From Cristatella mucedo (Eukaryota; Bryozoa; Phylactolaemata; Cristatellidae), in the NCBI GenBank assembly GCA_009760855.2, contig WPIO01000005.1:3122501-3186500 (forward strand): a DNA stretch of 64,000 nt, given 5' to 3'. Position 1 is the stretch's first letter. The number at the start of each line of letters is the position of its first letter. The position numbers were made by a program, and so were the translations under genes. Shown here piece by piece: positions 24,863 through 64,000 of the stretch. The notes below the pieces were generated by a model. That model was not told the origin of the DNA and ran no database searches. It was given only the letters and a program-made list of their open reading frames with translations.

Positions 24863-24932
24863 ATGATGGTGGCCGGTGCTTTATGGAAGGTGCTGCTTGT
24901 CTCGAGTGTGACGCTGCACGTTTTCGTACAGG
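24863..24932 (+). CDS. Exon 1: signal peptide
   Basis: ATGATGG opens a frame encoding [20 protein letters not shown], then FVQ and the first base of the next codon. This is a short start with a hydrophobic core, as in a secretory signal peptide. It ends at CAGG|GTAAGG, a strong donor, in phase 1. The phase fits the next exon candidate at 28716. I chose it because signal peptide, donor and phase coincide on the right strand upstream of the protease exons; the alternative is a start inside the exon that contains the catalytic N-terminus (ATG at 29659). Confidence 0.5.

Positions 24933-64000: not shown

What the first reader, a model, noticed from the sequence alone, without database searches (positions are those of the whole stretch)
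24863..64000. Divergent tolloid/BMP1-type protease gene spanning more than 39 kb
Seen: signal peptide, RxxR site, intact HExxHxxGFxHE, CGCC loop, SLMHY, CUB, EGF and CUB modules in the tolloid order on one strand, with splice phases that match. Known: tolloids act on procollagen and chordin-type proteins. Inferred: an active protease with an unusual non-catalytic half. The catalytic domain is well kept while the CUB modules drift strongly, which suggests changed substrate or partner binding in this lineage.
Basis: partly seen in the sequence, partly recalled or inferred. Interest (0 to 1): 0.75.

Follow-up and report, generated by a model that had tools for sequence, protein, structure and literature searches.

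The report
Second, shortened tolloid protease gene
This is a fast-evolving second copy of a tolloid (BMP1-type) secreted protease gene in an invertebrate animal that also keeps a normal full-length tolloid; the copy has fewer substrate-binding modules than usual.

Summary
Twelve + strand exons joined by GT-AG introns in matching phases give a 626-codon frame from a furin-type site (RPQRAQR) to a stop: astacin, CUB, EGF, CUB, CUB. The last two exons lie 1.6-3.1 kb beyond the window, in the window's own genome. A signal-peptide exon at 24863-24932 is plausible, but no prodomain exon linking it was found.

The catalytic domain has the CGCC loop, [13 protein letters not shown] and SLMHY, and groups with BMP1, TLL1 and a full-length tolloid of the same genome (93/94). 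That gene, on contig C43, has five CUBs and two EGFs, so the window gene is a divergent paralogue with three and one.

The paralogue is accelerated throughout. Of columns shared by human and C43 it keeps 73/120 (catalytic) and 95/188 (best-matching CUBs, p = 0.08; 79/174, p = 0.013, with the other reference CUBs); only CUB-b departs on its own. No chordin-type CHRD domain was found; five fibrillar-procollagen loci were.

Verdict: real, probably functional, new member of a known kind; low to modest interest.

The parts
24863..24932 (+). candidate first exon: [24 protein letters not shown] signal peptide, donor AGG|GTAAGG, ends in phase 1
   Evidence: donor score 10.4; the only exon of this kind on the + strand at my hydropathy cut of 2.0, value 2.06; one on the - strand. 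Link to the next exon not shown.
29770..29863 (+). exon with furin-type site RPQRAQR and mature N-terminus [17 protein letters not shown]
   Evidence: acceptor TTTTCAG, phase 0
31226..31379 (+). astacin exon, [13 protein letters not shown] to EDCG (CGCC loop split by a phase-2 intron)
   Evidence: intron position and phase shared with the C43 gene
40323..40448 (+). astacin exon, CC of CGCC and [13 protein letters not shown] zinc site
40984..41125 (+). astacin exon, RPDRD to Met-turn SLMHY
43724..43847 (+). astacin C-terminal exon
43950..44066 (+). CUB-a, first part
47332..47565 (+). CUB-a, second part
59523..59666 (+). EGF_CA-like module, phase 1-1 exon, scoring nearer EGF1 than EGF2 of human and C43 tolloid
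59819..60003 (+). CUB-b, first half; CUB-b groups with CUB3
62473..62662 (+). CUB-b, second half, with an insertion before its last strand
   Evidence: missed by the read-through Pfam scan
63354..63460 (+). exact 107-bp copy of part of the CUB-c exon that lies at 65745-65851 (outside the window); CAG at its start and GTAAGT at its end make it exon-like, and a TTTAG just upstream would keep it in frame

Best explanation
The window holds a divergent paralogue of the animal's own tolloid gene. It encodes a secreted zinc metalloprotease of the BMP1/tolloid type. The likely course is: signal peptide, removal of an N-terminal piece after RPQRAQR by a furin-like convertase, then cleavage of extracellular substrates by an astacin domain with an intact active site. 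Three CUB modules and one calcium-type EGF module carry the substrate exosites. Compared with the canonical tolloid kept elsewhere in the same genome it has two CUBs and one EGF fewer and has evolved fast along its whole length. It therefore most likely does not replace the canonical enzyme but works on a narrower or different set of matrix or growth-factor-related substrates; fibrillar procollagens are present in the genome as possible targets. Shown: the exon chain, frame, motifs, modules, kinship and second gene. Inferred: expression, secretion, activation, activity and substrate change.
For: A 626-codon frame across 12 exons with GT-AG introns ending in a stop. Pfam Astacin E 1.1e-58 and three CUB stretches. 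PDB search: BMP1 100 bits and TLL1 95.7 against 71.4 for the next astacin. The four tolloid rows stand on one side of a branch at 93/94, in 96% of 200 bootstrap trees. CGCC loop present here and in the C43 gene, absent in 9 of 9 other astacins of this genome whose translation covers the loop (many more of the 81 exon matches were not translated). Two introns inside the catalytic domain shared with the C43 gene in position and phase (one, one by hand count). Canonical CUB1-CUB2-EGF1-CUB3-EGF2-CUB4-CUB5 on C43. No Pfam family in the 12-kb intron; best CUB score there 3.9 bits, reached by 47 of 100 Markov shuffles. Four cysteines in each CUB and six in the EGF.
Against: No transcript evidence. 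Prodomain with its zinc-blocking FxGD not found. The branch to the window gene is long (1.94), so its sister place to the C43 gene (83/78) is weak. The module scan of the intron is not perfect: the same kind of Pfam scan missed exon 62473-62662, and my CUB and EGF profiles were built partly from this gene's own CUB-a and EGF. An EGF-like stretch at 52490 (10.7 bits, reached by 3 of 100 shuffles) may be a relic or a missed exon. Several splice sites score poorly.
Confidence: 0.8

Rival explanations
1. The exons belong to two genes: an astacin-CUB gene ending near 47.6 kb and a separate EGF-CUB-CUB gene beginning near 59.5 kb.
For: A 12-kb stretch without recognised modules separates them. No transcripts were available.
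Against: Same strand, phases 1 and 1 match across the gap, and CUB-EGF-CUB is part of the tolloid order. A start for a second gene was not searched for.
Confidence: 0.08
2. It is a tolloid with more modules, whose further CUB or EGF exons were missed because they have drifted too far.
For: Long introns of 8.9 and 12 kb (from the coordinates); an EGF-like stretch at 52490; the Pfam read-through scan missed one real CUB exon.
Against: The tolloid CUB profile scored the other CUB exons at 18.3 to 90.1 bits, bar the last short one at 10.3 (it was trained partly on CUB-a), and nothing above 3.9 bits in the 12-kb intron. The 52490 stretch ends in a stop without a donor, and a stretch at 47011 inside a CUB intron scores higher, 13.3.
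Confidence: 0.1
3. It is a decaying pseudogene.
For: Prodomain not found; long branch; a 107-bp exon fragment duplicated beside CUB-c.
Against: No stop or frameshift in 626 codons after about 1.9 changes per column on its branch, with zinc site, Met-turn and module cysteines kept.
Confidence: 0.05
4. It is a non-tolloid astacin that gained CUB and EGF modules separately.
For: Module number departs from the tolloid description in PMC9848320.
Against: CGCC loop, 93/94 tolloid branch, shared introns, CUB-b grouping with CUB3 at 88/91.
Confidence: 0.04

Closest known systems
Canonical BMP1/tolloid-like proteinases (human BMP1/mTLD, TLL1; this genome's C43 gene)
   Same: Astacin domain with CGCC loop, HExxHxxGFxHE, SxMHY; CUB and EGF modules after it; two catalytic-domain introns shared with the C43 gene
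   Different: Three CUBs and one EGF instead of five and two; 48-50% catalytic identity against 69% between human and C43
BMP-1, the short splice form of the mammalian gene
   Same: A tolloid with fewer modules than the long form
   Different: The short form lacks the last three modules (passages of PMC4988381); here there is a separate gene with one CUB before the EGF and two after it
Tolloid-related astacins with deviating CUB/EGF arrangements, such as the Trichoplax protein
   Same: Already reported as existing in PMC9848320, its section 2.4 (read)
   Different: Their exact arrangements were not seen here, so identity of architecture could not be checked
Sea urchin SpAN/BP10 (recalled, no call)
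   Same: Astacin with EGF and CUB modules
   Different: Recalled order astacin-EGF-CUB-CUB, without a CUB between protease and EGF

Membership tests
Astacin family M12A | HExxHxxGFxHE zinc site with family glutamate, RxDRD and SxMHY Met-turn (PMC9848320) | tested here: met
   [24 protein letters not shown]; Pfam PF01400 198.5 bits against cut-off 22.5
Astacin family M12A | prodomain with zinc-blocking aspartate (FxGD; motif form recalled) | tested here: inconclusive
   none found upstream of 29770; could be split by an intron
BMP1/tolloid-like proteinases | catalytic domain in the tolloid clade, with CGCC loop (loop as marker: recalled, and seen in the BMP1/TLL1 chains) | tested here: met
BMP1/tolloid-like proteinases | five CUB and two EGF modules after the protease (PMC9848320) | tested here: not met
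   three CUBs and one EGF; nothing above chance for CUB in the 12-kb intron, with the limits told under evidence against
BMP1/tolloid-like proteinases | furin-type activation site before the protease (recalled) | tested here: met
   RPQRAQR before [11 protein letters not shown]
BMP1/tolloid-like proteinases | cleaves procollagen or chordin-type substrates | not testable with these tools
   five COLFI loci found; no CHRD domain match

The most novel reading that the evidence does not exclude
In a protostome-type lineage without a detectable chordin-type CHRD domain, a tolloid paralogue lost exosite modules and was released from the canonical job, giving a second tolloid with a new substrate set beside an intact canonical enzyme.
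Probability: 0.15. Interest if true: 0.4.

Novelty: new member of a known kind. Interest (0 to 1): 0.25.

Why it matters
Module loss beside an intact canonical copy in one genome is a natural test of what individual CUB and EGF modules do in tolloid substrate choice. Otherwise it is a normal product of gene duplication in a large metazoan protease family.

Tried and rejected
Rejected: an extra CUB module at 63354, because it is an exact copy of part of the next exon. Rejected: a direct in-frame join of the signal exon to the RPQRAQR exon (printed), because that join used a wrong start, 29768; the exon starts at 29770 in phase 0. Rejected: spurious exons proposed by my spliced aligner (45050-45227 and 46434-46441, 64591-64615), which have no profile support. 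Not decided: whether CUB-a is CUB1 or CUB2 and CUB-c CUB4 or CUB5. Led nowhere: Rfam on 62900-63500 (no match); prodomain search with a recalled BMP1 prodomain; two loose motif matches in the prodomain interval, neither convincing. Literature listings for sponge, lophotrochozoan, second or divergent tolloids showed me no matching case; this covers only the held open-access library and only titles and abstract starts. Structure prediction was not run: the spliced product is not a contiguous reading of the window. Rows left out of the astacin tree: L002 and L004 (near copies of L001), L005 (same gene as C43), L006, L007, L008, L023, L027 (partial), the untranslated remainder of the 81 matches, and the meprin and crayfish astacin chains.

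Full report
The window is 64 kb of contig C550 (3122501-3186500, + strand) of a 572-Mb genome in 688 contigs. COX1 on contig C688 lies in an open frame of 517 residues with 15 TGA codons; several of its 11 AGA/AGG codons stand where serine is usual and several of its 12 ATA codons where methionine is usual (the usual residues are recalled). That is the invertebrate mitochondrial code, which points to a protostome rather than a sponge, cnidarian, echinoderm or vertebrate. The phylum was not settled.

Exon chain. Reading the splice sites gave 12 exons. With the first one corrected to 29770 they join into 626 codons and a single, terminal stop. The eleven introns fall at phases 1, 2, 2, 0, 1, 1, 1, 1, 0, 1, 1. 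Pfam on the product: Astacin 198.5 bits, CUB three stretches, EGF_CA 24.5 bits, under its curated 27. The last two exons were found in 40 kb of own-genome sequence downstream, so the gene runs to 67141 in continued coordinates, about 42 kb from the candidate first exon. Some splice sites score poorly on my matrix: acceptors 59523 (-0.8), 40984 (1.7), 62473 (1.9), donors 29863 (1.7) and 31379 (2.9).

The 5' end is open. The exon at 24863-24932 codes for a hydrophobic leader and has a strong donor. It is the only such exon on the + strand of the window under my thresholds, and it just passes them (2.06 against 2.0); the - strand has one. It ends in phase 1 and the RPQRAQR exon starts in phase 0, so at least one exon lies between. 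No FxGD motif was found, a looser motif gave two unconvincing matches, and 17 open candidate exons contained no GD or ND. The site cut-offs used would also miss some of the established exons.

Kinship. The 93-residue core around the zinc site finds BMP1 at 100 bits and TLL1 at 95.7, then other astacins from 71.4 down. The CGCC loop is in the window gene, in human BMP1/TLL1 and in the C43 gene, and in 0 of the 9 other astacins of this genome whose translation covers the loop (L001-L004, L022, L024-L026; C92). The other translated loci gave partial or stray sequence there, and most of the 81 exon matches were not translated. In a tree of 15 rows the four tolloids form one side of a branch at 93/94, in 96% of 200 bootstrap trees. 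The window gene is sister to the C43 gene at only 83/78 and has a branch of 1.94 changes per column.

The canonical copy. Contig C43 912-949 kb holds a tolloid with CUB1, CUB2, EGF1, CUB3, EGF2, CUB4 and CUB5 after its catalytic exons; its 5' exons before 912441 and its stop were not established. Two introns in the catalytic domain agree in position and phase with the window gene (the one in CGCC, the one before the helix HWE by hand count); others do not. With the low identity this makes a recent duplication unlikely.

Missing modules. Between CUB-a and the EGF lies a 12-kb intron. Pfam in three frames, stops read as X, gave no family there at E up to 10. The same kind of scan downstream found the first half of CUB-b, the CUB copy at 63354 and, below cut-off, the EGF, but missed exon 62473-62662, so it can miss a CUB exon. 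The best tolloid-CUB score in the intron is 3.9 bits, reached by 47 of 100 Markov shuffles; the best EGF score, 10.7 bits at 52490, is reached by 3 of 100 (both profiles were trained partly on this gene's own modules). The 52490 stretch ends in a stop without a donor, and one at 47011 inside a CUB intron scores 13.3, so the signal is weak, though a relic is possible. CUB-b groups with CUB3 (88/91), and the EGF scores closer to EGF1 (102 against 77 in human, 84 against 80 in C43). So the likely set is one of CUB1/CUB2, EGF1, CUB3 and one of CUB4/CUB5; CUB-a and CUB-c are unresolved.

Rates. Human against C43: catalytic 69%, CUBs 49-60%, EGFs 57 and 65%. Window against these: catalytic 48-50%, best-scoring CUB matches 41, 38 and 35%, EGF 40-43%. 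At columns where human and C43 agree, the window gene keeps 73/120 catalytic, 37/68 CUB-a (against CUB2), 15/24 EGF (against EGF1), 26/59 CUB-b (CUB3) and 32/61 CUB-c (CUB4). Pooled these CUBs are 95/188, p = 0.08 against catalytic. With the other references (CUB1, CUB4, CUB5) they are 79/174, p = 0.013; without CUB-b 69/129, p = 0.25. CUB-b alone differs at p = 0.039 (CUB3) or 0.007 (CUB4), uncorrected. Choosing the best-matching CUB favours high retention, so a mild excess of change in the CUBs is not excluded. Changes unique to the window gene in the catalytic domain are 46, against 5 for C43 and 11 for human. Acceleration is general, with CUB-b the extreme.

Function. Tolloid CUB and EGF modules carry exosites (PMC9848320, its section 2.4, read). 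Passages of PMC4763255 report that CUB1-CUB2-EGF1 and CUB4-CUB5 each bind chordin tightly, that CUB2 is needed for maximum procollagen I cleavage by BMP-1, and that CUB5 is required by TLL-2 and Drosophila tolloid for their substrates. [quoted passage not shown] Losing modules should thus change substrates or oligomer state; which way cannot be told. No CHRD domain matched in the genome, with the caveat that the search is exon by exon, while 16 COLFI matches at five loci show fibrillar procollagens and 17 VWC matches on five contigs show possible BMP modulators. By eye, and from the recalled consensus, CUB-c keeps the calcium residues, CUB-a has lost one, CUB-b at least one, and the EGF keeps its calcium pattern.

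Verdict. A real, most likely functional tolloid paralogue with a reduced module set; a member of a known kind, and related astacins with deviating CUB/EGF arrangements are already in print.

Noticed in passing
63354-63460: Exact 107-bp copy of part of the CUB-c exon at 65745-65851 (continued coordinates), no flanking target-site duplication of 4-12 bases; starts with CAG and carries the donor GTAAGT, so it could act as a cryptic exon. May be recent, or an assembly error.
   Followed up: partly
63174-63328: Dispersed repeat, 91% identical to an inverted copy at 70240-70394 in continued coordinates, shorter copies nearby; looks like a tRNA-derived SINE by eye, but Rfam gave no match.
   Followed up: partly
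8883-9314: Possible fragment of a reverse transcriptase on the + strand (Pfam RVT_1 E 0.014, below cut-off); nine other ORFs of the window given to the same call matched no family, though some look like retroelement remains by eye.
   Followed up: partly
52490-52541: EGF-like stretch [17 protein letters not shown] directly followed by a stop, in the intron where a canonical tolloid could have EGF1; weak.
   Followed up: partly
G000:C656:703425-979717 (loci L001-L004, L007, L008): A tandem array of astacin genes on the - strand of one contig: 18 matches that cover the zinc-site exon.
   Followed up: no
own genome: No CHRD (chordin) domain match, although VWC domains occur on five contigs.
   Followed up: partly
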